Shown here piece by piece: positions 51,073-64,000 of a DNA stretch of 64,000 bases. A model generated the notes under the pieces. The model was not told where the DNA came from, searched no databases, and saw only the letters and a program-made list of their open reading frames with translations. The position numbers and the translations under genes were made by a program. Position 1 is the first letter of the stretch; every line of letters begins with the position of its first letter. This stretch comes from Sphingopyxis sp. Lineage in GTDB: Bacteria; Pseudomonadota; Alphaproteobacteria; Sphingomonadales; Sphingomonadaceae. Location of the stretch: assembly GCF_016793825.1 (NCBI RefSeq), contig NZ_JAEULM010000052.1:1-64000 (forward strand), given 5' to 3'.

Positions 51073-54000
51073 ATGACACCCCGCTTTTTCATCGACCGGC
51101 CCATTTTCTCATGGGTCATCGCGATCGGCATCCTTCTCGCCGGGATCATCGCGCTGCGCGGGCTTCCCGTGGAACAATATCCGTCGGTCGCGCCGCCATC
51201 GCTGACGATCAGCGTCACCTACCCCGGCGCCGACGCCGGCACGCTCGAACAGAATGTCACGCAGGTGATCGAGCAGGAGCTGAACGGCGTCGAAGGCTTC
51301 CTCTACATGGCCTCGACCAGCGAATCGAACGGCACCGCCTCGATCACGCTGACCTTCGAGGCCGGAACCGACATCGACACCGCGCAGATGGAAGTGCAAA
51401 ATCGCCTGCGCCGCGTCGAACAGCGGCTGCCGGAGGATGTCCGCCGTCAGGGAATCTCGGTCACGGAAGCCAATTCCGGTTTCCTGCTGATCGTCGCGAT
51501 CACCTCGAAAAGCGGCAACACCGACCCGATGGAGGTCAATAATTTCGCCAACACGCGCGTACTCGACGAGCTGCGCCGCGTGAACGGGGTCGGCAATGTC
51601 CAGGCGTTCGCCCCCGAATATGCGATGCGGATCTGGCTCGATCCGCAAAAGCTTGCCTCGCACAATCTGTCGCCGGCCGAAGCGCTCGCCGCCGTGCAGG
51701 AACAGAACAGCCAGACGCCGGGCGGTCAGCTTGGCGACCAGCCGCTCGCCAAGGGCGCGCAGCTCAACGCCGTGATCACGACGCAGGGACGCTTCACCAA
51801 ACCCGAGCAGTTCGAAAGCATCATCCTGCGCGCCAACCCCGACGGATCGGCGGTCACGCTGGGCGACGTCGGCCGCGTCGAACTGGGCGCCGCAAGCTAC
51901 CTCTTCTCGTCCGAACTCAACGGCAAGCCGATGGCCGGGCTTGCCGTCCAGCTCACCCCCGGCGCGAACGCACTGTCGACCGCCGAGGGCATCCGCACGC
52001 GGATGGACGAACTGTCGAAGGGCTTCCCGCCCGACATCACCTGGTCGATCCCCTATGACACGACGCCCTTCATCAGCCTGTCGATCGAGGAAGTGGTAAA
52101 GACGCTGGGCGAAGCGATGCTGCTCGTCTTCCTCGTCATGTTCCTGTTCCTCCAGAACTGGCGGGCGACGGTGATCCCGACCGTCGTCGTGCCGATCGCG
52201 CTGGCGGGCGCCTGCCTCGGCCTCTGGATGGCGGGCTTCTCGATCAACGTGCTGACCCTGTTCGGCATGGTGCTGGCGATCGGCATCCTCGTCGACGATG
52301 CGATCGTCGTGATCGAAAATGTCGAACGCATCATGAGCGAGGAGCATCTCTCGCCCTATGAAGCGACGGTGAAGGCGATGGGCCAGATCACCTCGGCGAT
52401 CATCGGCATCACGCTGGTGCTGATCGCGGTGTTCATCCCGATGGCGTTCTTCCCCGGATCGACGGGGGGCATCTACCGCCAGTTCTCACTGACGCTCGCG
52501 ATCTCGATCGCCTTCTCGGCGTTGCTGGCGCTGACGCTGACGCCCGCGCTTTGCGCGACGCTGCTGAAACCGCACGACAATAGCGTCCGCAAGGGTCCGG
52601 TCGGCGAGCGGCTCGACCGCTTCTTCGCCGGCTTCAACGGCTGGTTCGGGCGCACGACCGACCGCTATCAGGGCGGTGTCGGTCGCATTTTGTCGGCGCC
52701 GCTGCGCTGGCTGGGCATCTTCCTTGCAATGGTCGCGGTGACGGCGCTGCTGTTCACGCGCCTGCCCGGCTCGTTCCTGCCGCAGGAAGACCAGGGCTAT
52801 CTGATCACCGTCGTGCAGGCGCCGCCCGGCGCCACGACACAGCGCACGAACGAGGCAACGAAGCAGGTGAAGGCCTTTTTCGCCCAGCAGCCGCAGGTCG
52901 CCAACGTCGTGTCGGTCAACGGCTTCAGCTTTTTCGGGCAGGGTCAGGCGAACGCGATCATGTTCACCCCGCTGAAGCCGTGGGAGGACCGCAAGGGTCA
53001 CGAAAACAGCGCCGATGCCATTGCAGGCAAGGCGATGGGCGCCTTCATGGGCATCAAGGAAGCCTTCGTCTTCTCGCTCAGCCCGCCGTCGATTCCCGAA
53101 CTCGGCACCGCGAGCGGTTTCACCTTCAAGCTTCAGGATCGCGGCGGGAATGGCCGCGCGGCCCTGATGCAGGCGCGAAACCAGATGCTCGGCGGCGCGA
53201 TGCAGAGCAAGCTGCTCGCCAATGTCCGGCCCGAGGGGCAGGAGGATGCGCCGGTGCTGAAGGTCGATATCGACCGCATCAAGGCGCGCGCGCTCGGCCT
53301 GTCGATCGGCGACGTCAACGCCACGCTCGCGATCGCCTTCGGTAGTGCCTACGCCAACGACTTCACGCGCGAGGGCCGCGTGCTGCGCGTCCTGATCCAG
53401 GCCGATGCGGCCAGCCGGATGACGCCGCAGGACGTGACCGATCTCAAGGTCCGCAGCGCCGACGGGCAGATGGTGCCCTTCGGGTCGTTCAGCACCGCCA
53501 CATGGTCGGCCGAGGCGCCGCAGCTTCAGCGGTACAATGGCTATCCGGCGATGACGATCTCGGGCGAGCCCGCACCCGGACAGTCGACCGGCGAAGCGAT
53601 GGCGGAGATGGAGCGGCTCGCCTCTGCGCTGCCTTCGGGCTTCGCCTATGAATGGACCGGCATCTCGTACGAGGAGAAGCAGTCGTCGGGCCAGATCGGG
53701 ATGCTGCTCGGCCTGTCGCTCGTCGTCGTCTTCCTGCTGCTCGCGGCGCTTTACGAAAGTTGGTCGGTGCCCGTCGCGGTACTTCTGGTGGTGCCGCTGG
53801 GCGTGCTCGGTGCTGTCCTCTTTTCGATGCTTCGCGGGCTTTCGGCCGACATCTATTTCAATGTCGGGCTGATCACGATCATCGGCCTGTCCGCAAAGAA
53901 CGCGATCCTGATCGTCGAATTCGCGATCGAGCAGGAGGCCGAAGGCAAGTCGACCCTCGACGCGGTGATGGAGGCGGTGAAGCTGCGCCTGCGTCCGATC

Positions 54001-54240
54001 ATCATGACCAGCCTCGCCTTCATCCTCGGCATGGTGCCGCTGGTGATCGCAAGCGGCGCGGGCGCGGCGAGCCGTATCGCGGTCGGATCGGGCGTGATGG
54101 GCGGAATGATCGCGGCCACGTTGCTCGGCATCTTCTTCATCCCGCTTTTCTACCTCTCGGTGCGCAAATGGCTGAGCCGCAAGCGTCCGCCAGCGCCCAC
54201 CGAAAAGGGTCATCATGACCCGGAGCCCGATCATGCGTAA
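51073..54240 (+). CDS. RND multidrug efflux permease (HAE1, AcrB/MexB-type)
   Basis: Inner-membrane proton-driven efflux transporter of 1055 residues, the usual HAE1 size. Landmarks include the N-terminal FFIDRPIFSWVIAIGILLAGIIALRGLPVEQYPSVAPP, the QEQNSQTPGGQLG porter-loop, the GMVLAIGILVDDAIVVIENVERIM transmembrane motif (TM4) with the paired aspartates that carry protons, and TM10 GLITIIGLSAKNAILIVEFAIE with its lysine. Twelve membrane segments and two large periplasmic loops are evident. The best match is to multidrug pumps such as MexB and AcrB; the range of substrates cannot be set from sequence. Its end overlaps the outer-membrane factor gene. Confidence 0.95.
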   Translation: MTPRFFIDRPIFSWVIAIGILLAGIIALRGLPVEQYPSVAPPSLTISVTYPGADAGTLEQNVTQVIEQELNGVEGFLYMASTSESNGTASITLTFEAGTDIDTAQMEVQNRLRRVEQRLPEDVRRQGISVTEANSGFLLIVAITSKSGNTDPMEVNNFANTRVLDELRRVNGVGNVQAFAPEYAMRIWLDPQKLASHNLSPAEALAAVQEQNSQTPGGQLGDQPLAKGAQLNAVITTQGRFTKPEQFESIILRANPDGSAVTLGDVGRVELGAASYLFSSELNGKPMAGLAVQLTPGANALSTAEGIRTRMDELSKGFPPDITWSIPYDTTPFISLSIEEVVKTLGEAMLLVFLVMFLFLQNWRATVIPTVVVPIALAGACLGLWMAGFSINVLTLFGMVLAIGILVDDAIVVIENVERIMSEEHLSPYEATVKAMGQITSAIIGITLVLIAVFIPMAFFPGSTGGIYRQFSLTLAISIAFSALLALTLTPALCATLLKPHDNSVRKGPVGERLDRFFAGFNGWFGRTTDRYQGGVGRILSAPLRWLGIFLAMVAVTALLFTRLPGSFLPQEDQGYLITVVQAPPGATTQRTNEATKQVKAFFAQQPQVANVVSVNGFSFFGQGQANAIMFTPLKPWEDRKGHENSADAIAGKAMGAFMGIKEAFVFSLSPPSIPELGTASGFTFKLQDRGGNGRAALMQARNQMLGGAMQSKLLANVRPEGQEDAPVLKVDIDRIKARALGLSIGDVNATLAIAFGSAYANDFTREGRVLRVLIQADAASRMTPQDVTDLKVRSADGQMVPFGSFSTATWSAEAPQLQRYNGYPAMTISGEPAPGQSTGEAMAEMERLASALPSGFAYEWTGISYEEKQSSGQIGMLLGLSLVVVFLLLAALYESWSVPVAVLLVVPLGVLGAVLFSMLRGLSADIYFNVGLITIIGLSAKNAILIVEFAIEQEAEGKSTLDAVMEAVKLRLRPIIMTSLAFILGMVPLVIASGAGAASRIAVGSGVMGGMIAATLLGIFFIPLFYLSVRKWLSRKRPPAPTEKGHHDPEPDHA

Positions 54241-55633
54241 TCTCGCCATCCTCATCGCCGCGACAGCGCTCGCCGGCTGCGCCAATCTCGCGCCGCCGCA
54301 TGTTCGGCCGCCGCTGCCGACCGACACGCAATATCCTGACGGTTTCGCGAACGACGTCGCGCCGGGACAGCGCGCGACCGAAATCGGCTGGCAGGATTTC
54401 TTCGCCGATCCGCAGCTCGCGGTGCTGATCGCCCGCGCGGTTGAACGCAACCGCGACCTCGCGATCGCCGTCGCACGGATCGAGGAGGCGCGGGGGCAGT
54501 ATCGCATCCAGGACGCCGATCGCCTGCCGACGGTGGGCGCGAGCGCCGGGGCGACGCGGAGCCGCGGCGCCTCGCTCACAGGCGTCGGAACCGACACCAC
54601 GAACCGCTATTCGGTCGGGGTCGGCGTGACCTCGTTCGAGCTCGATTTCTGGGGGCGGGTGAAAAATCTCTCGGACGCCGCGCGCAGCCAGTATCTTGCG
54701 ACCGGACAGGCCGAACGCGCCTTTCGCCTGACGCTGGTCCGCGACGTCGCCTCGGCCTATTTCGCCTCGCGCGGCGCCGAGGAGCAGATCAAGCTTGCCG
54801 AAGCGACGGTGACGAGCCGCAAGGAAGGGCTGCGCATCGCAAGGCTGCGGCTCGACGCGGGGGTGACCTCGGCGCTCGACTACCGCCAGTCGGAAACGCT
54901 GCTCACCCAGGCCGAGACCGAGCTCGCCAGCCTCAGGCTCGCGAAGGCGCAGAGCGACAATTTCCTCGCCGTGCTGGTCGGCGGACCGCTGCCGCCCGAC
55001 CTTCCGGCCCCGCTACCGCTAGCCGCGCAGTCGAGCCCGCCCGCACTGTCCGCCGGCCTGCCCTCCGACCTGCTGGTCGCGCGGCCCGACATCCTGTCCG
55101 CCGAGGAACAGCTTCGCGCCGCGCGCGCCAATGTCGGCGCCGCGCGCGCCGCATTCTTTCCGTCGATCTCCTTGACCGGCTCCGTCGGCTTCGCGTCGAG
55201 TTCGCTCGACAACCTGTTCGGCAACAACGGCCTGACGTGGAGTTTCGGCCCGTCGATCAGCCTGCCGATCTTCGACTTCGGGCGCAACAAGGGCAATCTG
55301 ACCGTTGCCGAGGCGCGGGAAAATATCGCGGTCGCAACCTATGAAAAGACGGTCCAGACGGCGTTTCGCGAGGTCGCCGACGCGCTCGCGGGGCGGCGCT
55401 ACCTCGCCGAACAGGTCGAAGCGCAGGAACGCGGCACGCTCGCCCAGCGCCGCATCGCCGACCTCGCGCGCAAACGCTATCGCGAAGGCGTCTCGACCTA
55501 CCTCGAAGTCCTCGATGCCGAACGCAACCTCTTTGCCGCCGAACAGGCGTTGATCGAACTGCGCCGGGCGCAGGTCGACAATCTGGTCACGCTTTATGTG
55601 GCCCTGGGCGGCGGGCTGGTCGAACGGCGCTGA
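54215..55633 (+). CDS. RND outer-membrane channel lipoprotein (OprM/TolC/NodT family)
   Basis: Outer-membrane factor of the pump, 472 residues. A lipoprotein signal (MRNLAILIAATALAGC with lipobox LAGC) anchors it; two OEP domains follow, the first with NRDLAIAVARIEEARGQYRIQDADRLPTVGASAGATRSRG and the second with ARANVGAARAAFFPSISLTGSVGFASSSLDNLF, and YREGVSTYLEVLDAERNLFAAEQAL near the C-terminus. Two starts are plausible: 54215 (AAAGGG five bases upstream) and 54233 (GGAG seven bases upstream), both overlapping the permease stop (54240). The gene completes a self-contained three-component pump under the TetR operator. Confidence 0.93.
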   Translation: MTRSPIMRNLAILIAATALAGCANLAPPHVRPPLPTDTQYPDGFANDVAPGQRATEIGWQDFFADPQLAVLIARAVERNRDLAIAVARIEEARGQYRIQDADRLPTVGASAGATRSRGASLTGVGTDTTNRYSVGVGVTSFELDFWGRVKNLSDAARSQYLATGQAERAFRLTLVRDVASAYFASRGAEEQIKLAEATVTSRKEGLRIARLRLDAGVTSALDYRQSETLLTQAETELASLRLAKAQSDNFLAVLVGGPLPPDLPAPLPLAAQSSPPALSAGLPSDLLVARPDILSAEEQLRAARANVGAARAAFFPSISLTGSVGFASSSLDNLFGNNGLTWSFGPSISLPIFDFGRNKGNLTVAEARENIAVATYEKTVQTAFREVADALAGRRYLAEQVEAQERGTLAQRRIADLARKRYREGVSTYLEVLDAERNLFAAEQALIELRRAQVDNLVTLYVALGGGLVERR

Positions 55634-55671
55634 TCGGACCGCACCGGCTCCGGTAACGGGCGTCGCGGTTC

Positions 55672-55702
55672 GCGGGGCGCCCGAAGCTTCGTTTCGCCCC
55701 GC
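55672..55702. terminator. GC-rich hairpin after the RND operon
   Basis: GCGGGGCG (55672-55679) and CGCCCCGC (55695-55702) form an exact 8-base GC stem with a 15-base loop, 38 bases after the stop of the outer-membrane channel gene. There is no T run, so Rho-independent termination is not assured; the position fits an operon end. Confidence 0.5.
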
Positions 55703-55880
55703 CAAACCACCCGCCCGGCAAGTGAACGGCGCTTTAACCCCCTTATCGCCTTCCAACTATCGCCGACGAAGCGCAGCCTGCGCACAGGTGTCGTCCTAAA
55801 AAAGCGGATGCCCGCCATCTTTACGCGGCGGATCTTCCCGAAAAACCAAAAACATAGTCAGACCAACAGGAGAGACTGCC

Positions 55881-57365
55881 ATGCCTCGTCACGGCGTATA
55901 TCCGCGCGACATCGTTCCGCCTCGTTCCCAATATTCCGACGCCGGCCGTTTTGGCCGCATGTTCGGCGAACTGCCGCCCTTCGCGGCCGACACCCCCGAC
56001 GTTCGCGCGGCCCTGATCGAGATCGGCAAGGTCGGCGGCATCATGGATGCCAAGGACAATCTGACCAAGACCCCCGCCGAACTCATCACCAACCCCGCAC
56101 TGTCGGCCAAGAACAGCGATAACCCGAACCTGACCGCCGGCTTCACCTTTCTCGGTCAGTTCCTCGATCATGACATGACCTTCGATCCGACCTCCAGCCT
56201 GGAACGGCAGGTCGATCCCGAACAGATCGCCAACTTCCGGACCCCCAGTCTCGGCCTCGACAATGTCTACGGCGCCGGGCCCGGCGGCAGTCCGCATCTC
56301 TATGACACGCAGGGCGGCAAGGGCGGCAAGTTCCTGCTCGAACCGACAGGCACCGCGAACAAGTTCGACCTGCCGCGCAACAGCCAGAAGGTGGCGCTGA
56401 TCGGCGATCCGCGCGACGACGAGAATCTGATCATCGGCCAGTTGCAGGTCGCCTTCCTCAAATTTCACAACGAGGTCGTCGAATATGTGAAGACCAAGAT
56501 CAAGCTGACGGGGTCGGACGAGATCTTCGCCGAAGCGCAACGGATCGTGCGCTGGCACTATCAATGGATCATCGTCCATGAATTCCTGCGCCGCACGTGC
56601 GGGGACGCGGTGGTCGACGACGTCCTCCAGAACGGCCGCAAATTCTATAGCTGGCATAACGAGCCCTACATCCCGGTCGAATTTTCGGTCGCGGCGTATC
56701 GGTTCGGGCACAGCCAGATCCGGCCGTCCTATCGCGCCAACTTCACCGGAAACGGCGGCAATCCCTTTTTCGCGATGATCTTCACCCCGACGCCATCGGA
56801 CCCGAACGACCCCGATGACCTGTCGGGCGGGTGCCGCGCGCCGCGGCGGTTCGTGGACTGGCCGACCTTCTTCGACTTCAGCGACGGCAATGTGAAGCCG
56901 AACAAGAAGATCGACACGACGCTGTCGACAGCGCTGTTCCGCCTGCCCGGATCGGTCGTTCCGAATCCCGATCCCAAGACGAACCCCGCGTCGCTGGCCC
57001 AGCGCAACCTGCTGCGCCACCTGACCTTCTCGCTTCCGTCGGGACAACGGGTCGCGCGCGCGATGAAATTGCCCGAACTGTCGAAAGGCGACCTCGCCGA
57101 CCTCAAGCCGCACGGCTTCGACGACCGGACCCCGCTGTGGTTCTATATCCTTCGCGAAGCGCAGGTGACGCAGAATGGCGAACGGCTGGGGCCGGTCGGG
57201 GCGCGGATCGTGACCGAGGTCTTCCTTGGCCTTCTCCAGGGCGACAAGGGATCCTATCTCGCGCAGGATCCCGAATGGCAGCCGTTCCTGCCGACGGTCG
57301 ATGCGTCGAAACAGGGCGACGATTTCAAGATGGTGGATCTCCTGAAATACGCGCAGGTCGCCTGA
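55881..57365 (+). CDS. Animal-type haem peroxidase (peroxidase-cyclooxygenase superfamily)
   Basis: A 494-residue heme peroxidase with no signal peptide. LGQFLDHDMTFDP (91-103) matches the distal-histidine motif of myeloperoxidase-type enzymes (WGQFLDHD), giving distal His97. GDPRDDENLIIGQLQVAFLKFHNEVVE matches the RxNEq-type family signature (about 176-202), and SVAAYRFGHSQIRPSYRANF matches the proximal-heme RFGHS motif with His277. No covalent-heme glutamate/aspartate assignment is attempted. It stands as a monocistronic gene, 247 bases downstream of the RND operon and preceded by a CAGGAGAG ribosome site. Bacterial members of this superfamily are few in function and poorly understood. A cytoplasmic or non-classically secreted location is implied. 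Confidence 0.9.
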   Translation: MPRHGVYPRDIVPPRSQYSDAGRFGRMFGELPPFAADTPDVRAALIEIGKVGGIMDAKDNLTKTPAELITNPALSAKNSDNPNLTAGFTFLGQFLDHDMTFDPTSSLERQVDPEQIANFRTPSLGLDNVYGAGPGGSPHLYDTQGGKGGKFLLEPTGTANKFDLPRNSQKVALIGDPRDDENLIIGQLQVAFLKFHNEVVEYVKTKIKLTGSDEIFAEAQRIVRWHYQWIIVHEFLRRTCGDAVVDDVLQNGRKFYSWHNEPYIPVEFSVAAYRFGHSQIRPSYRANFTGNGGNPFFAMIFTPTPSDPNDPDDLSGGCRAPRRFVDWPTFFDFSDGNVKPNKKIDTTLSTALFRLPGSVVPNPDPKTNPASLAQRNLLRHLTFSLPSGQRVARAMKLPELSKGDLADLKPHGFDDRTPLWFYILREAQVTQNGERLGPVGARIVTEVFLGLLQGDKGSYLAQDPEWQPFLPTVDASKQGDDFKMVDLLKYAQVA

Positions 57366-57419: not shown

Positions 57420-58202
57420 TCAGTCGGCGGCGAATGCGATCCGGTCGGCGGCCGCGCCCGCCATCATGAAGCCGACGGGGCGCTCGCTCTCTTCCTGAAG
57501 GTGCCCGATCAGGCTGGCGGTGCGCGCAAGAAGCGAAATCCCTTTCAACGCCTCGAGCGGATAGCCGACATCCAGCATCACCGCGGGAATCGCTCCGTTG
57601 ACGTTGATCGGCAGCGTCCGGCCGATCGTGTCGGGCAGCGCATCCTGTACCGCATGGAGCATGGCGACATGCCGGCCATCGACGCCATGTTCGCGGGCAA
57701 GCGCCAGCAGGCGGATCGCGCGCGGATCGCCCGCCGAATGTTCGGGATGGCCGAGGCCGGGGATCGCCTGCCTGTCGGCGCGAAGCGCGGCGATGCCCGC
57801 TCTGGCGGAGTCGGCCTCGGTCAGGCCGTCGCGGTCCATCGCCTCGATCCTCCCGGCCAGGAAGCGGCCAGCGGTTTCCGCACTCCCCAGCACGACCGAT
57901 CCGCAACCGAGCAATCCCGCCGCGACCGCGCCCTGAAACGCTTCCGGCGCGGCAGCCATCGTCATCCGCGCAACGGCGACGCTCGGCACCAAACCATGCT
58001 CGGCAATCGCGCACAGCACGGCGTTGGCAAAGAATTTCTGCGTCTCGGTCGGCGGCGTCCCGGTGACCAGCAGCCAGAAATAATGCGTGAAATCGAGATG
58101 GCCGATGACCTCATCGGCAACATTCAGCCCGCGGACCGTGATACTCTTCGCATCGGAGGTCGCGATCGACGTATAGCCATTGTCCTGTTTGCCGATGCGC
58201 AT
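57420..58202 (-). CDS. Citryl-CoA lyase-like (citrate synthase superfamily) protein
   Basis: A 260-residue one-domain member of the citrate synthase superfamily, like the citryl-CoA lyases annotated in proteobacteria. Segments include DEVIGHLDFTHYFWLLVTGTPPTETQKFF, CAIAEHGLVPSVAVARM (the EHG histidine takes the place of the citrate synthase His274), IPGLGHPEHSAGDPRAIRLLALA and the VNGAIPAVMLDVGYP segment near the catalytic Asp. The second substrate-binding histidine region of citrate synthase (GPLHGG) reads GCGSVVLGSAETA, so that His is absent. It likely cleaves or forms a CoA-linked hydroxyacid, with substrate unknown. It lies divergent from a CoA transferase, with a shared operator between. 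Confidence 0.85.
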   Translation of the reverse strand: MRIGKQDNGYTSIATSDAKSITVRGLNVADEVIGHLDFTHYFWLLVTGTPPTETQKFFANAVLCAIAEHGLVPSVAVARMTMAAAPEAFQGAVAAGLLGCGSVVLGSAETAGRFLAGRIEAMDRDGLTEADSARAGIAALRADRQAIPGLGHPEHSAGDPRAIRLLALAREHGVDGRHVAMLHAVQDALPDTIGRTLPINVNGAIPAVMLDVGYPLEALKGISLLARTASLIGHLQEESERPVGFMMAGAAADRIAFAAD

Positions 58203-58218
58203 GGCCTTTTCCTCTTTT

Positions 58219-58250
58219 TTCGATCATCGAAGTTGATTTCACTATGCGAA
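58219..58250. promoter_or_regulatory. Probable IclR operator, copy 1 (citryl-CoA lyase / CaiB intergenic region)
   Basis: A 13-base perfect palindrome TTCGAT-C-ATCGAA (58219-58231) is followed by TTGATT and the imperfect palindrome TTCACTATGCGAA (58238-58250). A 32-base match to this composite recurs before the TonB receptor. It would overlap the plus-strand promoter (TTGATT at 58233, then TAGGAG after 17 bases) and lies just upstream of the minus-strand start at 58202. Confidence 0.75.
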
Positions 58251-58253
58251 TTT

Positions 58254-58269
58254 TTTAGGAGGGCTGTCA
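58254..58269 (-). promoter_or_regulatory. Possible -35/-10 of the citryl-CoA lyase-like gene
   Basis: On the minus strand the sequence TTGACA (58270-58265) is followed after 18 bases by CATAGT. This is a plausible but not exact sigma-70 promoter for the minus-strand gene, and its -10 region overlaps the operator copy 1. Confidence 0.45.
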
Positions 58270-58290
58270 AGTTGCTCCGGGAGAGACAGA

Positions 58291-59442
58291 ATGGCAAAGC
58301 CGCTGGCCGACATAACCGTGCTCGAAATGGGCACTTTCATCACCGGTCCGGCCGCCGGAATGCTGCTGGCGGACCTCGGTGCGAAGGTCATCAAGATCGA
58401 ACAGCCGGTCACTGGCGACCCCTTTCGCGCGTTCAAAGGCGGTCTCTACAGCCCGCACTATCAGACCTATAACCGCAACAAGCACAGCGTCACGCTCAAC
58501 ACGCGCGACCCCGACGACCTGGCCGTCTTCGACGCCCTTGTGGCCGATGCCGACGTCTTCATCCAGAATTTCCGTCCCGGCGTGGCGGCGAAGCTCGGCG
58601 TCGATGCGGATCGGCTGCGCGCCATCAACCCGCGTCTTGTCTATGCCTCGATCTCGGGCTTCGGCGCGGAAGGCCCCGACCGCGACCGCCCGGCGTTCGA
58701 CACCGTGGCGCAGGCCGCCAGCGGATTTCTGCGCCTGCTCGTCAATCCGGCGAATCCGCGCGTCGTGGGACCGGCGATCGCCGATTCGATGACCGGATTC
58801 TACACCGCGCTCGGCGTTCTGGCGGCGTTGAACGAACGGCATGCGACGGGGCGCGGACGCCGGGTCGAAACGTCGATGTTCGAATCGATGTGCCACTTCA
58901 ACCTCGACGACTTCACCCACCTGTTTTCCGCCGGCGAAATCATGGGACCGCTCAGTCGGCCGCATGTGTCCCAATCCTATGTCTTCGAATGCAGCGATGC
59001 GAAATGGATCGCGCTCCACATGTCGTCTCCGGCCAAGTTCTGGGAGAATCTGGCCGAGGTCGTCGGCCGGCCGGACATGCTGTCGTTGCCCGAATTCAAG
59101 GGGCGAGACGAACGGATCGCCAATTACGAAAATGTCGTCGCGCTACTGGCGCCGCTGTTCCGGCAGCGGAAACGCGATGAATGGTGCGACCTGCTGACCG
59201 CGCGCGAAGTGCCCCATTCGGCGATGCGGACGTCGGAGGAGGCGGCCACCTGTCCACAGGCGGAGGCATTGGGTCTGGTCGTCGAAGACGCGAATGGACC
59301 CCAGGGTCCATTCCGGACTATACGCTTTCCCGTCAGCTTCGACGGCGAGCGCATGACCGACGTCGTGGCGCCGCCGTTGCTCGGGGCCGACAATGACGCG
59401 ATCACAGAACCCCTCCGGAAAAGACCGCCAGGAACTCCATGA
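58291..59442 (+). CDS. CaiB/BaiF-type CoA transferase
   Basis: Class III CoA transferase of 383 residues moving CoA between a CoA thioester and a free acid. Family hallmarks are ITVLEMGTFITGPAAGMLLADLGAKVIKIEQPVTGDPFR (8-46), HSVTLNTRDPD (65-75), the AINPRLVYASISGFG region (111-125) and the catalytic aspartate near Asp137 in RPAFDTVAQAASGF. The C-terminal segment REVPHSAMRTSEEAATCPQAEALGLVVE is also normal. It is the first gene after the operator and overlaps the IclR gene (ATGA), so regulator and enzyme are coupled. Substrate pair is unknown. Confidence 0.94.
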   Translation: MAKPLADITVLEMGTFITGPAAGMLLADLGAKVIKIEQPVTGDPFRAFKGGLYSPHYQTYNRNKHSVTLNTRDPDDLAVFDALVADADVFIQNFRPGVAAKLGVDADRLRAINPRLVYASISGFGAEGPDRDRPAFDTVAQAASGFLRLLVNPANPRVVGPAIADSMTGFYTALGVLAALNERHATGRGRRVETSMFESMCHFNLDDFTHLFSAGEIMGPLSRPHVSQSYVFECSDAKWIALHMSSPAKFWENLAEVVGRPDMLSLPEFKGRDERIANYENVVALLAPLFRQRKRDEWCDLLTAREVPHSAMRTSEEAATCPQAEALGLVVEDANGPQGPFRTIRFPVSFDGERMTDVVAPPLLGADNDAITEPLRKRPPGTP

Positions 59443-60248
59443 CGAACAAGGCCGATAAAGACCCTGAGTATCTCTCGACGCTCGAACGCGGACTCAGGGT
59501 TTTAAGGGCCTTTGACGAACAAAATCCCGAAATGCGGCTCAGCGAGGTCGCGGCCAAGGCCGACCTCAGCCCCGCCGTCGCGCGGCGCTGCCTGAACACG
59601 CTGGTTTCGCTCGGCTATGTGGGCCAGCACGGCCGCAATTTCCTTCTGAAGCCCGAAGTCCTGGCGTTCGGTTCGGCCTTCATGTCGTCGATGAACATCG
59701 AACAGGTCGTCGCCCCGTCGTTGCAGCGGCTGCGCGACGAGACGGGCGACAGCGCGTCGATGGCGGTTCTCGCGGGCGAAGACATCCTCTATCTCGCCCA
59801 TGTCTCGACGCGGCGGCAGATCCGCCTCGGCGCCGCCGCGGGCACGCGCTTTCCGCTGCACGCCACGTCGATGGGCAAGGCGATCCTCGCGTTCCGACCC
59901 GATGCGGAGATCGAGGCCTTTCTGGCGTCGGCGGACCTCAGGTCCTTCACCCCGAACACGATCACCCGGCCCGATGCACTGCGCGAGCGGCTGCTGCAAA
60001 CGCGCGCGCAGGGTTATGATTCGACCTGCGAGGAACTCGACATGGGTATCATTTCCCTTGCCGTCCCGATCTTCGATGCGCGCCACAATTCGATCGCCGC
60101 GATCAACTGCTCGACGACGACAGGCCGGACCAATCCCCAGGAAATGATCGCGACCCGCCTCGACGATCTGCGCGCCGCCGCCAGCGAAATTCAGCAGGCT
60201 TTGCGGCGGTGGCCGGCGCTGCTCCACGCGATGGAGACATCACCCTAA
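59439..60248 (+). CDS. IclR family transcriptional regulator (PcaR-like subgroup)
   Basis: A 269-residue IclR protein: N-terminal winged HTH (YLSTLERGLRVLRAFDEQNPEMRLSEVAAKADLSPAVARRCLNTLVSLGYV, about 9-60) and a C-terminal effector domain (about 80-255) with GTRFPLHATSMGKAILAF, LRERLLQTRAQGYDSTCEELDMGIISLAVPIFDARHNSIAAINC. That last stretch is close to the PcaR/PcaU/PobR subgroup that binds aromatic-acid or ring-cleavage metabolites, which is suggestive only. The ATG overlaps the CaiB stop. The likely targets are the two near-identical operators flanking the cluster, so it probably autoregulates through CaiB. Confidence 0.93.
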   Translation: MTNKADKDPEYLSTLERGLRVLRAFDEQNPEMRLSEVAAKADLSPAVARRCLNTLVSLGYVGQHGRNFLLKPEVLAFGSAFMSSMNIEQVVAPSLQRLRDETGDSASMAVLAGEDILYLAHVSTRRQIRLGAAAGTRFPLHATSMGKAILAFRPDAEIEAFLASADLRSFTPNTITRPDALRERLLQTRAQGYDSTCEELDMGIISLAVPIFDARHNSIAAINCSTTTGRTNPQEMIATRLDDLRAAASEIQQALRRWPALLHAMETSP

Positions 60249-60251
60249 TTT

Positions 60252-60283
60252 TTCGATTATCGAATTTGACTTCGCATTTCGAA
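60252..60283. promoter_or_regulatory. Probable IclR operator, copy 2 (upstream of the TonB receptor)
   Basis: TTCGAT-T-ATCGAA (60252-60264) and TTCGCATTTCGAA (60271-60283) repeat the composite seen at 58219-58250 with the same internal spacing. The two copies agree at about 25 of 32 positions, far above chance for intergenic DNA. Confidence 0.8.
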
Positions 60284-60294
60284 AGTCATATAGC
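60266..60294 (+). promoter_or_regulatory. Promoter of the TonB-dependent receptor gene
   Basis: TTGACT (60266-60271) and TATAGC (60289-60294) are separated by exactly 17 bases, a good sigma-70 promoter. The -35 box and the spacer lie inside the operator copy 2, so a bound regulator would overlap RNA polymerase. The receptor ATG is 33 bases downstream of the -10 box. Confidence 0.75.
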
Positions 60295-60326
60295 CACTCC
60301 CAACTAAACAATATAGGGAGAGGGGC

Positions 60327-62501
60327 ATGAATGCTTTTGCACGTTCGGGCGTCGCTTTGCTGCTGGCATGCAGCGCGCTGACGCCGGCCTGGGCACAAGA
60401 AGCCAGCCAGGATAATTCAGCGGAAGACGGCAACGATATCGTCGTGACCGCGCTGCGCCGCGACGGCAATCTTCAGGACACCCCCGCCGCGGTCACCGCG
60501 TTCACGTCCGACACGATCGAAAGCGCCGGGATCGAACGGCCGGCCGACTTCGTGAACCTCACCGCCAACGTGAACCTTGTCGAGACGCAGAACGCGGGCA
60601 ATGCCTTCGTGATCATCCGCGGGATCACGCAGGCCCGCAACAGCGAACCCTCGGTCGCGGTCGTCATCGACGGCGTGCAGCAGGTCAATCCCGCCGCGTT
60701 CAACCAGGAACTGTTCGACATCGACCAGATCGAAGTGCTGAAGGGACCGCAGGGCGGCCTGTACGGGCGCAACGCGATCGGCGGCGCGATCATCATCAAC
60801 ACCAAACAGCCGACCGACACCTTCGAAGGCAAGATCAAGGTCGGGGTCGAAAACGGCTTCGGATGGCAGGCGCGCGGGGGGATCAGCGGTCCGCTGTCGG
60901 ATAACATCCGGTTCCGCGTCTCGGGGTCCTATGTCGACAGCGACGGACACCTCCGCAATACCTTCCTCAAGGAAAAGGCCGATCCCTACAAGGACATGGC
61001 GGTTCGCGGGAATCTGCTGATCGATGCGGGCGGCGGGCTGGCCGTCGACCTGCGCGCTTCCTATGCGCGGCTCGAAACGCAGGCGCTCTATTTCAACATC
61101 GTCCAGGACGTCAACGACACCAGCCTGCCGATCCGGGTCAACAATTCGGGCCAGAATGATCGCGACCTGATGAACGTCGCGGCCAAGATCAGCTATGACA
61201 CCGACAATTTCTCGGTCACGTCGATCTCCTCCTATGACACGGTGAAGGAAGTCCTGACCGGCGACGCCTTCGACTTCCTGCCGATCCAGGACTCGCTGTT
61301 CTTTCAATTGCTGGGCTTCGACCTCAACCAGAGCCAGTATCTGAACGTGAAGGCGTTCAGCCAGGAACTGCGATTCCAGTCGGCGCCGAGCAGCAAGCTG
61401 TTCTGGATGTTCGGCGGCTACCTGATCGACACCAGCCGTTTCATTTCGACCGGCAACATGGTCGATACGGGCAACGGCGTCTTCCCCGTGTATCGCACGC
61501 CCAGCACCAACCCGCTCAATCCGCAGGCGACCTTCCTGTCGGACAGCCAGAAGAATTTCGCCTGGGCGGTGTTCGCCAACCTCGGCTATGATTTTTCCGA
61601 CACGCTGCGCGTCGATGCGTCGCTGCGCTATGACCATGACCGGCGGCGCAATACCACGCTGACGCCGACCGCCTTCCTGCCCAACCTGCCGGGCTTCCCG
61701 CAGGGCGCGACCGGCGACGTACGCCGCGACACGTTCAGCGACTGGCAGCCGAAAGCGACGCTGACCTACAAGCCGTCGGACGATGTCACGCTCTATGGCG
61801 GTTACAGCCGCGGTTTCCGGTCGGGCGGTTTCAACCAGACCGGCGTCGGCTCGATCGCGGCATCGAACGGCATCGTCGGGGTCGGCGACGTGTTCGAGGC
61901 GGAAACCGCCGACACGTTCGAGGTCGGCCTGAAGACGCGGTTCGCCGATCGCAAGATCACGTTCAACGCCGCCGCCTACACGACGATGTCGAAGAACAGC
62001 TATTTCTTCGTTTTCCTCGCCGCCAACTCGACCCAGAATCTGGGCAACATCCCCAGGACGCGGATCCAGGGTTTCGAGATGGAGCTGCAGGCGCGCCCGG
62101 CCCCGTCGGTCCAGCTCAACGCGGCCGTCGGTTACACATGGAGCGACATCAAGAAATTCCCCGATCCGACCGTCATCGGCAACGAGGCACCGCTCATCTC
62201 GCGCTACACGTATAACCTCGGCGCGCAGTTCACGCCGTCGCTGGGCGGCAGCCTGGAGGGGCTGTTCCGCGTCGATTACCGGCGCACCGGCAAGACCTGG
62301 TGGGAACCGTACAACACCACGGTCCGCAAGCCGGTCGACCTCGTCGACCTGCGCGCCGGGGTGAAGAGCGACGCCTGGAGCCTCACCGCCTATGCGACCA
62401 ACCTGTTCAACAAGAAATACAACGCCGAATTCTCGCCGGGCGGGTTCGTCTTCAAGGCACGGCCGCGCGTTTACGGGCTCGAGGCGACCTATTCCTTCTA
62501 A
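60327..62501 (+). CDS. TonB-dependent receptor
   Basis: Outer-membrane TonB-dependent transporter of 724 residues. A signal peptide (ACSALTPAWAQ, ending near residue 24) is followed by the TonB box region DIVVTALRRDGNLQDTPAAVTAF and the plug domain with DGVQQVNPAAFNQELFDIDQIEVLKGPQGGLYGRNAIGGAIIINTKQP. A 22-strand barrel then closes with GLEATYSF, ending in the aromatic residue needed for outer-membrane assembly. It matches the sphingomonad type that imports non-siderophore organic substrates. The ribosome site is GGGAGAGGGG. It is preceded by an IclR operator and its own promoter, and its 3' end runs into wrbA in 9 bases, so it is likely the uptake step of the cluster. Confidence 0.95.
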   Translation: MNAFARSGVALLLACSALTPAWAQEASQDNSAEDGNDIVVTALRRDGNLQDTPAAVTAFTSDTIESAGIERPADFVNLTANVNLVETQNAGNAFVIIRGITQARNSEPSVAVVIDGVQQVNPAAFNQELFDIDQIEVLKGPQGGLYGRNAIGGAIIINTKQPTDTFEGKIKVGVENGFGWQARGGISGPLSDNIRFRVSGSYVDSDGHLRNTFLKEKADPYKDMAVRGNLLIDAGGGLAVDLRASYARLETQALYFNIVQDVNDTSLPIRVNNSGQNDRDLMNVAAKISYDTDNFSVTSISSYDTVKEVLTGDAFDFLPIQDSLFFQLLGFDLNQSQYLNVKAFSQELRFQSAPSSKLFWMFGGYLIDTSRFISTGNMVDTGNGVFPVYRTPSTNPLNPQATFLSDSQKNFAWAVFANLGYDFSDTLRVDASLRYDHDRRRNTTLTPTAFLPNLPGFPQGATGDVRRDTFSDWQPKATLTYKPSDDVTLYGGYSRGFRSGGFNQTGVGSIAASNGIVGVGDVFEAETADTFEVGLKTRFADRKITFNAAAYTTMSKNSYFFVFLAANSTQNLGNIPRTRIQGFEMELQARPAPSVQLNAAVGYTWSDIKKFPDPTVIGNEAPLISRYTYNLGAQFTPSLGGSLEGLFRVDYRRTGKTWWEPYNTTVRKPVDLVDLRAGVKSDAWSLTAYATNLFNKKYNAEFSPGGFVFKARPRVYGLEATYSF

Positions 62502-62510
62502 GGAGCGACA

Positions 62511-63113
62511 ATGGCCAGGATTCTCGTTCTCTATTATTCGGGCTATGGCCATGTCGAGGCGATGGCCGCGGCGGTCGCCGAAGGCGCAGCCAGCGTCGCG
62601 GGGTGCACCTGCGACGTCCGGCGCGTGCCCGAACTCGTGCCGGCGGAGGTCGCGGCGGCATCGGGCATGAAGGTCGATCAGGCCGCGCCGGTCGCGGCCG
62701 TCGACGACCTGCCGTCCTATGACGCGATCATCTTCGGCACGCCGACGCGCTTCGGCAACATGGCGGCGCAGATGCGCAACTTCCTCGATCAGACGGGCGG
62801 CCTGTGGTTCACGCGCGCGCTGGTCGGGAAAGTCGGCAGCGTGTTCGCGTCGACCGCCAGCCAGCATGGCGGGCAGGAGACGACGATCACTTCCTTCCAT
62901 ACCAGCCTGCTGCATCACGGCATGATCATCGTCGGCCTGCCCTACAGTTTCGAAGGCAATGCCGAGATGGGCGAGATCAGCGGCGGCACCCCCTATGGCG
63001 CGACGACGATCGCCGGCGCCGACGGATCGCGGATGCCCAGCGCGAACGAACTTGCCGGCGCGCGCTTCCAGGGACAACATGTCGCCGAAATCGCGAAGAG
63101 GCTGTTCGGCTGA
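62511..63113 (+). CDS. wrbA: WrbA-like NAD(P)H:quinone oxidoreductase (flavodoxin fold)
   Basis: A 200-residue WrbA-type FMN protein, NAD(P)H-dependent quinone reductase. The FMN phosphate loop is [22 protein letters not shown] (5-26). [27 protein letters not shown] (about 70-96) and [34 protein letters not shown] are the standard WrbA segments, and the C-terminal [21 protein letters not shown] also fits. It is 9 bases after the receptor stop, so is in the same transcript. WrbA proteins keep quinones reduced without radical formation; in this cluster a role in handling a quinone-like product of ring cleavage is a guess. Confidence 0.93.
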
Positions 63114-63151
63114 TCGACCCCGCCATTGACGACAAGCAAAGGAAACGAGCG

Positions 63152-63700
63152 ATGACTGCACCCTTGGCCAATCGGCTGCACCACACCGCCTATGTCGTGA
63201 AGAATCTGGAAGCGACGCGGCATTTCTATGAAGATATCCTCGGCTTCCCACTGGTCGCCACCTGGTGCGAGCAGGAGGAGTTGTTCGGATCCGAACGGAC
63301 CTATTGCCACTGCTTCTTCGCGCTTCGCGACGGCAGCGCGCTCGCCTTTTTCCAGTTCGTCGATCCCGGCGACCAGGATGAGTTCGGCCCCGACCTGCCG
63401 CCCAGCCCCTTCCGTCACGTCGCCCTCAACGTCGACGCCGAGGCGCAGGCCGAACTGGAGCGGCGGATCGACGCGGCGGGCTTCGTCGCGCCGCAGACCT
63501 ATGTGCTCGAACATGGCTATTGCCGGTCGGTCTATGTCATCGATCCCGACGGGATGATCCTCGAATTCACTCTCGATGCGACAAACGCCGACCAGATCAA
63601 CGCGGCCCGCGCCGCCGACGCGCATAGCGAACTCAAGCGCTGGCTCGCAGGCGATCATCGGCCGAACAACGACGTGCGCCATTTCGCCGAAACCCACTGA
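63152..63700 (+). CDS. VOC-fold protein, extradiol dioxygenase-like
   Basis: A 182-residue VOC protein with two paired modules. The first begins LHHTAYVVKNLEATRHFYEDILGFPLVATW (10-39) and the second FRHVALNVDAEAQAELERRIDAAGFV (about 91-116), ending VIDPDGMILEFTLDA. Candidate metal ligands are the early His in the HHTAYVV segment (H11), the second His in FRHVALN and the final Glu in ILEFTLD, the two-His-one-carboxylate pattern of extradiol dioxygenases and glyoxalases. Its N-terminal module is longer than in resistance proteins, favouring an enzymatic VOC. It is 38 bases downstream of wrbA. Reaction unknown, ring cleavage or epimerisation both possible. Confidence 0.85.
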   Translation: MTAPLANRLHHTAYVVKNLEATRHFYEDILGFPLVATWCEQEELFGSERTYCHCFFALRDGSALAFFQFVDPGDQDEFGPDLPPSPFRHVALNVDAEAQAELERRIDAAGFVAPQTYVLEHGYCRSVYVIDPDGMILEFTLDATNADQINAARAADAHSELKRWLAGDHRPNNDVRHFAETH

Positions 63701-63714
63701 CGGGTCGCCCCGCG

Positions 63715-64000
63715 ATGAGCCATGACCGCTTCCTGACCACGCATGTGGGGTCGCTGCCGCGCGAGGATGACCTTGTCGACCTGATGGTCGCGCAGGAAGA
63801 GGGGGAAGCCGTCTCCCCCGACGCGCTCGCCGCGCGGATCGAGGAGGCGGTGCATTTCGTCGTGCGCAAGCAGGCCGAGGCCGGCATCGACATCATCAAC
63901 GACGGCGAACAGTCGAAACCCAGCTATGCCACCTACATCAAGGACCGACTGAACGGCTTCGGCGGTTCGGGCAATTCCTATGTCTTTCAGGACCTGGAGG
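63715..64000 (+). CDS. MetE-like protein (cobalamin-independent methionine synthase C-terminal family), cut by the window edge
   Basis: The first 95 residues of a protein of the cobalamin-independent methionine synthase (MetE C-terminal) family. RFLTTHVGSLPR (5-16) is the family start, with the zinc-binding-domain strand pattern, and EAGIDIINDGEQSKPSYATYIKDRLNGFGG (about 59-88) is the substrate-binding segment. The catalytic cysteine-histidine-cysteine zinc site, expected in the missing C-terminal part, is not visible. Stand-alone copies of this domain outside methionine synthesis are found in catabolic clusters and may transfer methyl or alkyl groups, but this cannot be decided here. It starts 12 bases after the VOC gene stop, so is part of the same operon. 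Confidence 0.85.
   Translation, partial: MSHDRFLTTHVGSLPREDDLVDLMVAQEEGEAVSPDALAARIEEAVHFVVRKQAEAGIDIINDGEQSKPSYATYIKDRLNGFGGSGNSYVFQDLE

What the first reader, a model, noticed from the sequence alone, without database searches (positions are those of the whole stretch)
57420..64000. Uncharacterised IclR-controlled uptake and CoA-ester catabolic module
A citryl-CoA-lyase-like protein, a CaiB-type CoA transferase, an IclR regulator, a TonB-dependent receptor, a WrbA-like flavoprotein, a VOC-fold enzyme and a MetE-like protein are compact and share operator copies. The set implies import of an organic acid or aromatic, activation to a CoA ester, and C-C cleavage or group transfer, but it matches no textbook pathway I know. 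The MetE-like partner is cut by the window edge, so the cluster is incomplete here.
Basis: partly seen in the sequence, partly recalled or inferred. Interest (0 to 1): 0.75.

Follow-up and report, generated by a model that had tools for sequence, protein, structure and literature searches.

The report
Likely quinone-degrading bacterial gene module
A compact, repeatedly co-inherited set of bacterial genes looks like an undescribed way to take up an aromatic, quinone-like compound, open its ring and cut the opened chain as a coenzyme-A ester; the exact compound is still unknown.

Summary
Citryl-CoA-lyase-like (CCL), CaiB, IclR, TonB, WrbA, VOC and MetE-like genes lie at 57420-64854 (last gene completed from the genome), followed by an alpha/beta hydrolase. 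They are co-conserved: among 196 genomes of the order, the 19 with the VOC orthologue and the 15 with the MetE orthologue all belong to the 21 with the CCL orthologue. The palindrome TTCGATnATCGAA occurs exactly twice in the 3.86 Mb genome, in the cluster's two promoters. The VOC profile's one solved-structure match (E<=1e-6) is titled homogentisate 1,2-dioxygenase. Elsewhere related CCL genes stand beside LigB-type or hydroxyquinol-dioxygenase-type ring openers (6 of 8 plasmid contexts viewed show some ring opener). I read it as ring-opening catabolism of a p-(hydro)quinone (TonB import, WrbA reduction, VOC cleavage) ending in CoA-dependent C-C cleavage by CaiB and CCL, perhaps bypassing maleylacetate reductase; MetE-like proteins may handle an O-methyl group. 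Gene content, co-conservation and operator are shown; substrate and chemistry are inferred. The name "citryl-CoA lyase" is doubtful: the catalytic Asp is absent in all 77 aligned rows. My searches found no paper describing the route. New variant of a known kind, interest 0.6.

The parts
57420..58202 (-). citryl-CoA-lyase-like protein (citrate synthase fold, PRK06224.1-5 subfamily), 260 aa; Asn202 at the catalytic-Asp position
58219..58231 (.). operator-like palindrome TTCGATCATCGAA in the divergent CCL/CaiB promoter
58291..59442 (+). class III (CaiB-type) CoA-transferase, 383 aa; catalytic-Asp position is Glu198
59439..60248 (+). IclR-family regulator, closest to the PcaR/PcaU/PobR model (259.5 bits, cut-off 284.75), 269 aa
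60252..60264 (.). operator-like palindrome TTCGATTATCGAA upstream of the TonB receptor gene
60327..62501 (+). TonB-dependent outer-membrane receptor, 724 aa
62511..63113 (+). WrbA-type NAD(P)H:quinone oxidoreductase, 200 aa
63152..63700 (+). single-domain VOC-fold enzyme, 182 aa; best solved match 9u42 (titled homogentisate 1,2-dioxygenase); probable ring-opening dioxygenase
63715..64000 (+). MetE-like protein (catalytic domain only, 379 aa), cut by the window edge; ends at G000:C1:64854; an alpha/beta hydrolase follows at G000:C1:64882-65619

Best explanation
A regulated aromatic-catabolism module. The TonB receptor imports a p-benzoquinone or p-hydroquinone-type aromatic (likely bearing O-methyl groups in this lineage). 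WrbA keeps it reduced as the hydroquinone. The VOC enzyme opens the ring between a hydroxylated carbon and its neighbour, giving a maleyl-type keto acid (maleylacetate or a substituted or methyl-ester form). The alpha/beta hydrolase and, where present, the MetE-like Zn enzyme(s) remove ester or methyl groups. CaiB moves CoA onto the opened chain, and the citrate-synthase-fold 'citryl-CoA lyase' cuts the C-C bond, releasing acetyl-CoA plus a C4 acid, which would replace maleylacetate reductase plus thiolase. The PcaR-like IclR protein, probably sensing an aromatic acid or ring-fission product, controls two promoters through TTCGATnATCGAA. Shown: gene content, co-conservation, operator, family and fold assignments, kept and lost catalytic residues. 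Inferred: substrate class, ring opening, order of steps, CoA-ester cleavage, demethylation, regulator-operator binding. My odds: ring-opening catabolism ending in CoA-dependent cleavage 0.7; p-hydroquinone-type ring 0.55; maleylacetate-type intermediate 0.35; MetE-like demethylation 0.3.
For: Co-conservation: 21 of 196 order genomes have the CCL orthologue (58-100%); VOC orthologue (62-100%) in 19, MetE orthologue (61-100%) in 15, all inside those 21 (Fisher 1.8e-24 and 5e-18). Of 38 loci fetched by MetE from the species collection, 30 carry CCL and 30 VOC. VOC: one PDB chain at E<=1e-6 in a profile search, 9u42 (E 5e-16), titled homogentisate 1,2-dioxygenase, also Foldseek rank 1 (E 1.2e-12, TM 0.73/0.78); H11, H53, H89, H121, Y128, E138 invariant in 49 of 49 rows. 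Ring openers beside related CCL genes: VOC on a Niveispirillum plasmid and, with an FAD monooxygenase, a Rhodococcus plasmid; LigB-type in Martelella, Aminobacter, Neorhizobium; intradiol in B. glumae, C. necator, G234, G424. The B. glumae one is hydroxyquinol-type (8r2x 9e-88, 1tmx 3e-76, catechol types from 9e-31), hence maleylacetate, with CaiB, CCL and LeuCD beside it and no maleylacetate reductase in the (incomplete) gene table. 10 of 15 module-bearing genomes have no Fe-ADH over the Pfam cut-off. Operator. Three of eight MetE-homologue contexts viewed lie near demethylase-type genes (DesA by model in one: 849.9, cut-off 800).
Against: No substrate, product or activity is known. 9u42's name is the depositors' title; I found no paper on it, and FosA/glyoxalase structures also match (E about 1e-8 to 1e-7). 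The CCL keeps H69, R161 and R227 (77 of 77), which by recall correspond to oxaloacetate-binding residues of citrate synthase; that suits a 2-oxo-acid product better than maleate. Loss of the catalytic Asp leaves the cleavage step without a demonstrated acid/base. LigB-type neighbours resemble gallate dioxygenase, which fits a different ring. Methyl transfer to homocysteine at growth scale would overproduce methionine. Two of eight CCL plasmid contexts viewed (Agrobacterium, Paraburkholderia) show no ring opener, and of 17 class-level CCL loci (L129-L145) only three have a close CaiB with a ring opener of a type I searched. Of 51 module loci, 13 show no matching alpha/beta hydrolase, 16 no close WrbA, 6 no close VOC. 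A VOC relative (49%) in G260 stands without the module. The window's own genome has two Fe-ADHs over the cut-off.
Confidence: 0.5

Rival explanations
1. The ring is a vicinal triol of the gallate/pyrogallol type. Extradiol and intradiol cleavage then give the same 4-oxalomesaconate-type tricarboxylate; CaiB and the CCL split its hydrated (citrate-like) CoA ester into acetyl-CoA and a 2-oxo acid, an alternative to the LigK aldolase.
For: Martelella and G234 share amidohydrolase, IclR, CCL, CaiB, YciI and TRAP genes but have LigB-type versus intradiol dioxygenase; the LigB-type neighbour is closest to gallate dioxygenase 3wku (E 7e-20); CCL keeps residues that by recall bind oxaloacetate; a MetE homologue in Croceicoccus sits with LigA, LigB, LigK and oxalomesaconate tautomerase.
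Against: VOC matches a p-hydroquinone (homogentisate) dioxygenase, not a gallate enzyme; the B. glumae opener is hydroxyquinol-type; the nine gene families found in five or more of 39 loci include no hydratase.
Confidence: 0.2
2. No ring is opened: the VOC protein is a glyoxalase, epimerase or thiol transferase and the module degrades a branched organic acid (citramalate- or citrate-like) through CaiB and a true CoA-ester lyase.
For: CCL fold and best structure are citryl-CoA lyase 6hxp; VOC also resembles FosA and glyoxalase I; TRAP transporters and tcuAB near the Martelella copy.
Against: Ring-cleavage dioxygenases of unrelated families beside CCL in other lineages, WrbA or other flavin/NADPH reductases in several, PcaR-like regulator, invariant His121/Tyr128.
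Confidence: 0.15
3. The MetE-like genes make this mainly a methyl-scavenging/methionine module: a folate-independent methionine synthase fed by methyl groups of the imported compound.
For: Four Zn ligands and the Ser/Glu/Asp positions aligned to homocysteine-binding residues are invariant in 51 of 51 MetE rows and 24 of 24 MetE2 rows (residue roles recalled); folate-independent MesD-type synthases are known (PMC7857596, passages).
Against: No MetE match at E<=1e-40 in 6 of 21 CCL genomes; none within the flanks examined of the Rhodococcus, Martelella and B. glumae loci. The MesD partner MesX was not searched for.
Confidence: 0.07
4. Chance neighbours with shared labels.
For: Patchy: 0 of 7 other genomes of the same genus carry the CCL, VOC or MetE orthologue.
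Against: Co-occurrence and operator statistics.
Confidence: 0.01

Closest known systems
Hydroxyquinol / hydroquinone pathway (ring opening to maleylacetate, maleylacetate reductase, CoA transfer, thiolase; recalled)
   Same: hydroquinone-type substrate, quinone reductase, ring-opening dioxygenase, CoA transferase, PcaR-like regulator
   Different: no reductase or thiolase among the recurrent gene families; CaiB-type transferase; citrate-synthase-fold enzyme at the C-C cleavage step
Homogentisate pathway (VOC-type homogentisate 1,2-dioxygenase, PDB 9u42)
   Same: the VOC enzyme's nearest solved relative in sequence and fold
   Different: 26% identity; no isomerase or fumarylacetoacetase among the nine families found in five or more of 39 loci
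Citryl-CoA lyase (6hxp, Hydrogenobacter) and ATP-citrate lyase C-terminal module
   Same: fold, length, 29% identity to 6hxp, conserved GH and DPR motifs
   Different: NVD motif is NVN or N-x-S/T/Q/A in 77 of 77 rows; GHR is GHPxH (P in 76 of 77); aromatic-catabolism context
Syringate/3-O-methylgallate catabolism of sphingomonads (DesA, LigM, LigAB, DesC/D)
   Same: MetE-like homologues (44-46%) lie near DesA or aminomethyltransferase-type genes and alpha/beta hydrolases in three plasmids
   Different: no folate-dependent demethylase or LigAB in this module
Core methionine synthases (MesA-D, core-MetE)
   Same: catalytic-domain-only MetE fold with Zn and homocysteine residues
   Different: below the NCBIfam cut-off of every methionine synthase model listed; catabolic context

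Membership tests
Citryl-CoA lyase (NF004868) | NCBIfam score over curated cut-off | tested here: met
   305.6 vs 193; a subfamily label, not an activity
Citryl-CoA lyase | catalytic Asp of the NVD motif | tested here: not met
   0 of 77 rows have Asp (N57, S12, T5, Q2, A1); NVD in 6hxp and bacterial ATP-citrate lyase
Citryl-CoA lyase | cleaves citryl-CoA | not testable with these tools
   no assay
Class III CoA-transferase | CoA_transf_3 domain | tested here: met
   343.1 vs 23.3 bits
Class III CoA-transferase | catalytic Asp (recalled from formyl-CoA transferase) | tested here: inconclusive
   Glu in 55 of 56 rows, but a PDB formyl-CoA transferase, 10uh, also has Glu there
PcaR/PcaU/PobR regulators (TIGR02431) | score over curated cut-off | tested here: not met
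   259.5 vs 284.75; best of the eight models listed, so 'like', not 'member'
WrbA quinone oxidoreductase (NF002999, TIGR01755) | score over curated cut-off | tested here: met
   341.2 vs 141; 311.4 vs 132.5
VOC-type ring-cleavage dioxygenase (homogentisate type) | metal ligands His/His/Glu plus second-sphere His and Tyr | tested here: met
   H11, H89, E138, H121, Y128 invariant in 49 of 49 rows and aligned with the same residues in 9u42; roles recalled
VOC-type ring-cleavage dioxygenase (homogentisate type) | O2-dependent ring opening | not testable with these tools
   no assay
Cobalamin-independent methionine synthase MetE | catalytic domain with Zn ligands | tested here: met
   PF01717 49.1 vs 21; H245, C247, E279, C343 in 51 of 51 rows
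Cobalamin-independent methionine synthase MetE | N-terminal folate-binding domain / curated cut-off | tested here: not met
   379 aa, only Meth_synt_2 found; NF003317 99.3 vs 406
TonB-dependent receptor | plug and barrel domains | tested here: met
   PF07715, PF00593
Hydroxyquinol/maleylacetate pathway | maleylacetate reductase (Fe-ADH family, recalled) linked to the genes | tested here: not met
   none among the families found in five or more of 39 loci; 10 of 15 module genomes have no Fe-ADH over cut-off; the window's genome has two, on another contig

The most novel reading that the evidence does not exclude
The module is an undescribed aromatic route with two new chemistries: a folate- and cobalamin-free O-demethylation by MetE-fold Zn enzymes that pass the methyl of a methoxy-hydroquinone (or of its ring-opened methyl ester) to homocysteine or another thiol, and a citrate-synthase-fold C-C hydrolase that, with a CaiB-type transferase, turns maleylacetate-type acids directly into acetyl-CoA and maleate/fumarate, skipping maleylacetate reductase and thiolase.
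Probability: 0.15. Interest if true: 0.82.

Novelty: new variant of a known kind. Interest (0 to 1): 0.6.

Why it matters
Genomes carry proteins labelled 'citryl-CoA lyase', 'VOC family protein' and 'cobalamin-independent methionine synthase II'. This module ties such genes to one another, to one regulator and operator, and to ring-opening dioxygenases, so the labels can be tested. If right, it adds a CoA-dependent end to hydroquinone-type aromatic degradation and would correct a misleading enzyme name.

Tried and rejected
Caulobacter papers holding 'citryl-CoA lyase' (PMC11005374, PMC3751524; [quoted passage not shown] The Acinetobacter ADP1 paper (PMC4213383; passages) lists a caiB gene near an IclR-type regulator (dcaS); no further match. 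Word counts in three sphingomonad papers (passages only): 'methionine' 0 in PMC8091115; 'methionine synthase' 0 in PMC6888825; 'methionine synthase', 'citryl' and 'CoA transferase' 0 in PMC12710314. Pfam scans of ten extra neighbours in L076 and L093-L095 gave no common enzyme. The second operon-like stretch at G000:C1 about 66.2-76.6 kb is not conserved beside the module, so I left it out. The MesD idea (PMC7857596, passages) was set aside because no core-synthase model reaches its cut-off; MesX was not searched for. The CaiB Asp-to-Glu change looked striking until 10uh showed it too. Isoprene and DMSP pathways were considered from memory only. A first count of MetE2 (23 of 51 loci; 30 rows) had taken in some MetE paralogues; with identity floors it is 21 of 51 loci and 24 rows.

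Novelty rests on ten full-text searches of a CC-licensed PMC library only: (listings; the last, for maleylacetyl-CoA and kin, found 0 papers). Subscription papers are mostly not held.
Full report
WHAT IS THERE. The CCL gene (57420-58202) is on the minus strand and diverges from CaiB (58291-59442), IclR (59439-60248), a TonB receptor (60327-62501), WrbA (62511-63113), VOC (63152-63700) and a MetE-like gene (63715-64854) on the plus strand. The window is the first 64 kb of contig C1 of a 3.86 Mb, 52-contig genome. Extending to the right completes the MetE-like protein (379 aa) and adds an alpha/beta hydrolase (G000:C1:64882-65619).

CO-CONSERVATION. In a sample of 196 genomes of the order, 21 hold a CCL orthologue (58-100% identity; a twenty-second hit, G185, is 37%). 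VOC orthologues (62-100%) occur in 19, all among these 21; weaker VOC homologues (32-43%) exist elsewhere and in the other two. MetE orthologues (61-100%) occur in 15, all among the 21; one further genome, G073, has a 49% homologue and no CCL. Fisher P is 1.8e-24 for VOC and 5e-18 for MetE, ignoring relatedness. Within the window's own family all 15 such CCL genomes have MetE; in the other families 0 of 6 do. None of 7 other genomes of the same genus has CCL, VOC (E<=1e-15) or the MetE orthologue, though two of them hold a MetE2 homologue (60-61%): the module is patchy, as a mobile catabolic island would be. Independently, a MetE search of the species collection gave 38 loci; 30 of 38 carry CCL, 30 VOC, 28 CaiB, 28 IclR, 29 TonB and 24 WrbA within the fetched DNA, several contigs being cut. 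The carriers are mostly Sphingomonadales and other Alphaproteobacteria, with one Lysobacterales MAG (L048) that has CCL (41%), TonB, VOC, IclR and both MetE types; the eight loci without CCL include Methylocapsa (L045) and an Erythrobacter MAG (L047). Gene order varies, and the module is split in G123 (WrbA-VOC-MetE2-MetE about 160 kb from CCL-CaiB) and G158. A second MetE-type protein (MetE2) joins it in 21 of 51 loci with CCL and CaiB but not in the window's genome at E<=1e-30.

OPERATOR. TTCGATnATCGAA occurs exactly twice in the whole assembly: in the CCL/CaiB divergent promoter and in front of the TonB gene. In 51 related loci, sites with up to two mismatches number 137 in 79,872 promoter bases and 46 in 923,591 other bases, a 34-fold excess. 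Loci with a linked IclR gene have a promoter site in 43 of 44 cases, loci without it in 1 of 7 (P 2.7e-6; exceptions L072 and L095). The pattern was taken from the window, the promoter zones are broad, and the loci are related (some duplicated). The regulator's best model is PcaR/PcaU/PobR (259.5 bits), under its cut-off of 284.75. I recall that PcaR-type sites contain GTTCGATAATCG; this comes from no call.

VOC ENZYME. A profile of 26 module VOC proteins matches a single PDB chain at E<=1e-6: 9u42 (E 5e-16); the single sequence also matches it best (2e-11, next 4e-4). The predicted structure (pLDDT 90.8) has 9u42 as top Foldseek hit (E 1.2e-12, TM 0.73/0.78, 26% identity), titled homogentisate 1,2-dioxygenase from Acinetobacter; a glyoxalase/dioxygenase, GloA2, FosA and others follow from E 3e-8. 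H10, H11, H53, H89, H121, Y128 and E138 are invariant in 49 of 49 rows. Homogentisate is a p-hydroquinone, and the module carries a bona fide WrbA quinone reductase by two models, so a p-hydroquinone-type ring is the simplest reading. I found no paper on 9u42.

RING OPENERS BESIDE CCL. Of 130 plasmid records with a CCL match I opened eight, from the top of the list. Six show a ring-opening dioxygenase within the flanks: VOC in Niveispirillum (tblastn); LigB-type, with a small neighbour that looks LigA-like by eye in Martelella and Aminobacter (and a homologue of it in Neorhizobium), in Martelella, Aminobacter and Neorhizobium; intradiol in Cupriavidus necator and Burkholderia glumae. Two do not (Agrobacterium, Paraburkholderia). 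Found through VOC instead, a Rhodococcus rhodochrous plasmid has a 57% identical VOC beside CCL (39%), CaiB (35%), an FAD monooxygenase, an NTF2-like protein, an alpha/beta hydrolase and a PcaR-like regulator. Among 385 class-level genomes, 32 have CCL at E<=1e-30; of the 17 loci opened from that search (L129-L145; L129 is probably the Niveispirillum plasmid again), L129, L130 (G234) and L135 (G424) have a close CaiB (61-68%) with VOC or intradiol genes, L145 a distant CaiB and IclR, and the others no close partner among my references. So the pairing is strong for the CaiB-linked branch, not for every 'citryl-CoA lyase'. Martelella and G234 share amidohydrolase, IclR, CCL, CaiB, YciI and TRAP genes but differ in LigB versus intradiol type. 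The B. glumae enzyme is hydroxyquinol-type, which by established chemistry gives maleylacetate; its neighbours are an MhpA-like hydroxylase, CaiB, CCL and LeuCD. In C. necator an AMP-binding CoA ligase stands next to CCL, a distant CaiB (32%) further off. The PLSDB gene tables are incomplete.

THE LYASE. Its fold and closest solved relative are citryl-CoA lyase 6hxp (29% identity, TM 0.75/0.76; model pLDDT 79.1). But the catalytic Asp of the NVD motif is Asn, Ser, Thr, Gln or Ala in 77 of 77 rows, and GHR has become GHPxH. PDB titles show ATP-citrate lyase D1026A and D541A mutants with bound substrates; by recall this is the same Asp. So the database name should not be taken as function. H69, R161 and R227 remain in 77 of 77. 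My inference: the enzyme still holds an acyl-CoA and a carboxylated or hydrated carbonyl and breaks the bond next to it, another residue (perhaps His155, 77 of 77) standing in for the Asp. For maleylacetyl-CoA, attack of water on the ketone followed by the same bond cleavage would give acetyl-CoA and maleate. Ten of 15 module-bearing genomes have no Fe-ADH over the Pfam cut-off, hence (maleylacetate reductase being, by recall, an Fe-ADH) no recognisable one; the window's genome has two, on contig C43.

METE-LIKE PROTEINS. Both types have only the catalytic domain. Zn ligands (H, C, E, C) and the Ser/Glu/Asp aligned to homocysteine-binding positions are invariant in 51 of 51 MetE and 24 of 24 MetE2 rows (roles recalled). 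MetE2 is the 'uroporphyrinogen decarboxylase family protein' next to CCL in Aminobacter, 71% identical. Of 207 plasmid records with a MetE match I opened eight. In three sphingomonad plasmids the homologue (44-46%) forms a trio with NTF2-like and IclR genes: near DesA, syringate O-demethylase by its model (849.9, cut-off 800), MetF, PurU, a FolD-type enzyme and LigAB in N. pentaromativorans; near an annotated aminomethyltransferase, MetF, PurU, FolD, LigK, LigAB in Croceicoccus; about 6 kb from a GcvT-barrel protein in Sphingobium RAC03. In three roseobacters it precedes an alpha/beta hydrolase and an RraA-type gene. In Dietzia and Halorussus (43-44%) the neighbours suggest no such link. This ties part of the family to methoxylated aromatics but does not show what it does; growth-scale transfer of methyl to homocysteine is a real difficulty.

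CONCLUSION. The module is real, coherent and carries one operator. The best reading is ring-opening catabolism of a p-(hydro)quinone-type aromatic with a CoA-dependent end; a gallate-type ring is the main rival. No paper in the held library was found to describe it.

Noticed in passing
window 58291-59442, residue Glu198: The catalytic-Asp position of the CaiB-type transferase is Glu in 55 of 56 homologues aligned (Ala in the Rhodococcus one); a PDB formyl-CoA transferase (10uh) also has Glu.
   Followed up: partly
L009 9168-19569 (G000:C1 about 66.2-76.6 kb): A second catabolic-looking stretch (VOC2, flavin monooxygenase-like, TetR, SDRs, LysR, GlcG-like, CocE/NonD-like hydrolase, second TonB receptor) follows the module but is not conserved with it; labels by eye.
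   Followed up: partly
L074, L154, L155: MetE-like, NTF2-like and IclR genes form a recurrent trio in three sphingomonad plasmids, two of them in clear O-demethylation regions.
   Followed up: partly
L098 5974-6999: A protein annotated 'uroporphyrinogen decarboxylase family' is a 71% homologue of MetE2 and scores best with methionine synthase models: a misleading label.
   Followed up: yes
window 51073-57365: Upstream of the module lie ORFs that look by eye like an RND efflux pump, its outer-membrane partner and a heme-peroxidase-type protein; not searched.
   Followed up: no
G000:C4:47319-47922 (L002): A second region 67% identical in DNA to the WrbA gene exists in the genome, so the module's WrbA may be a dedicated paralogue.
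   Followed up: no
L148 (G185:C9): A locus with no CCL match holds a MetE2 homologue (72%) and a MetE-type homologue (about 40%) with an SDR, suggesting another pathway for the MetE pair.
   Followed up: no
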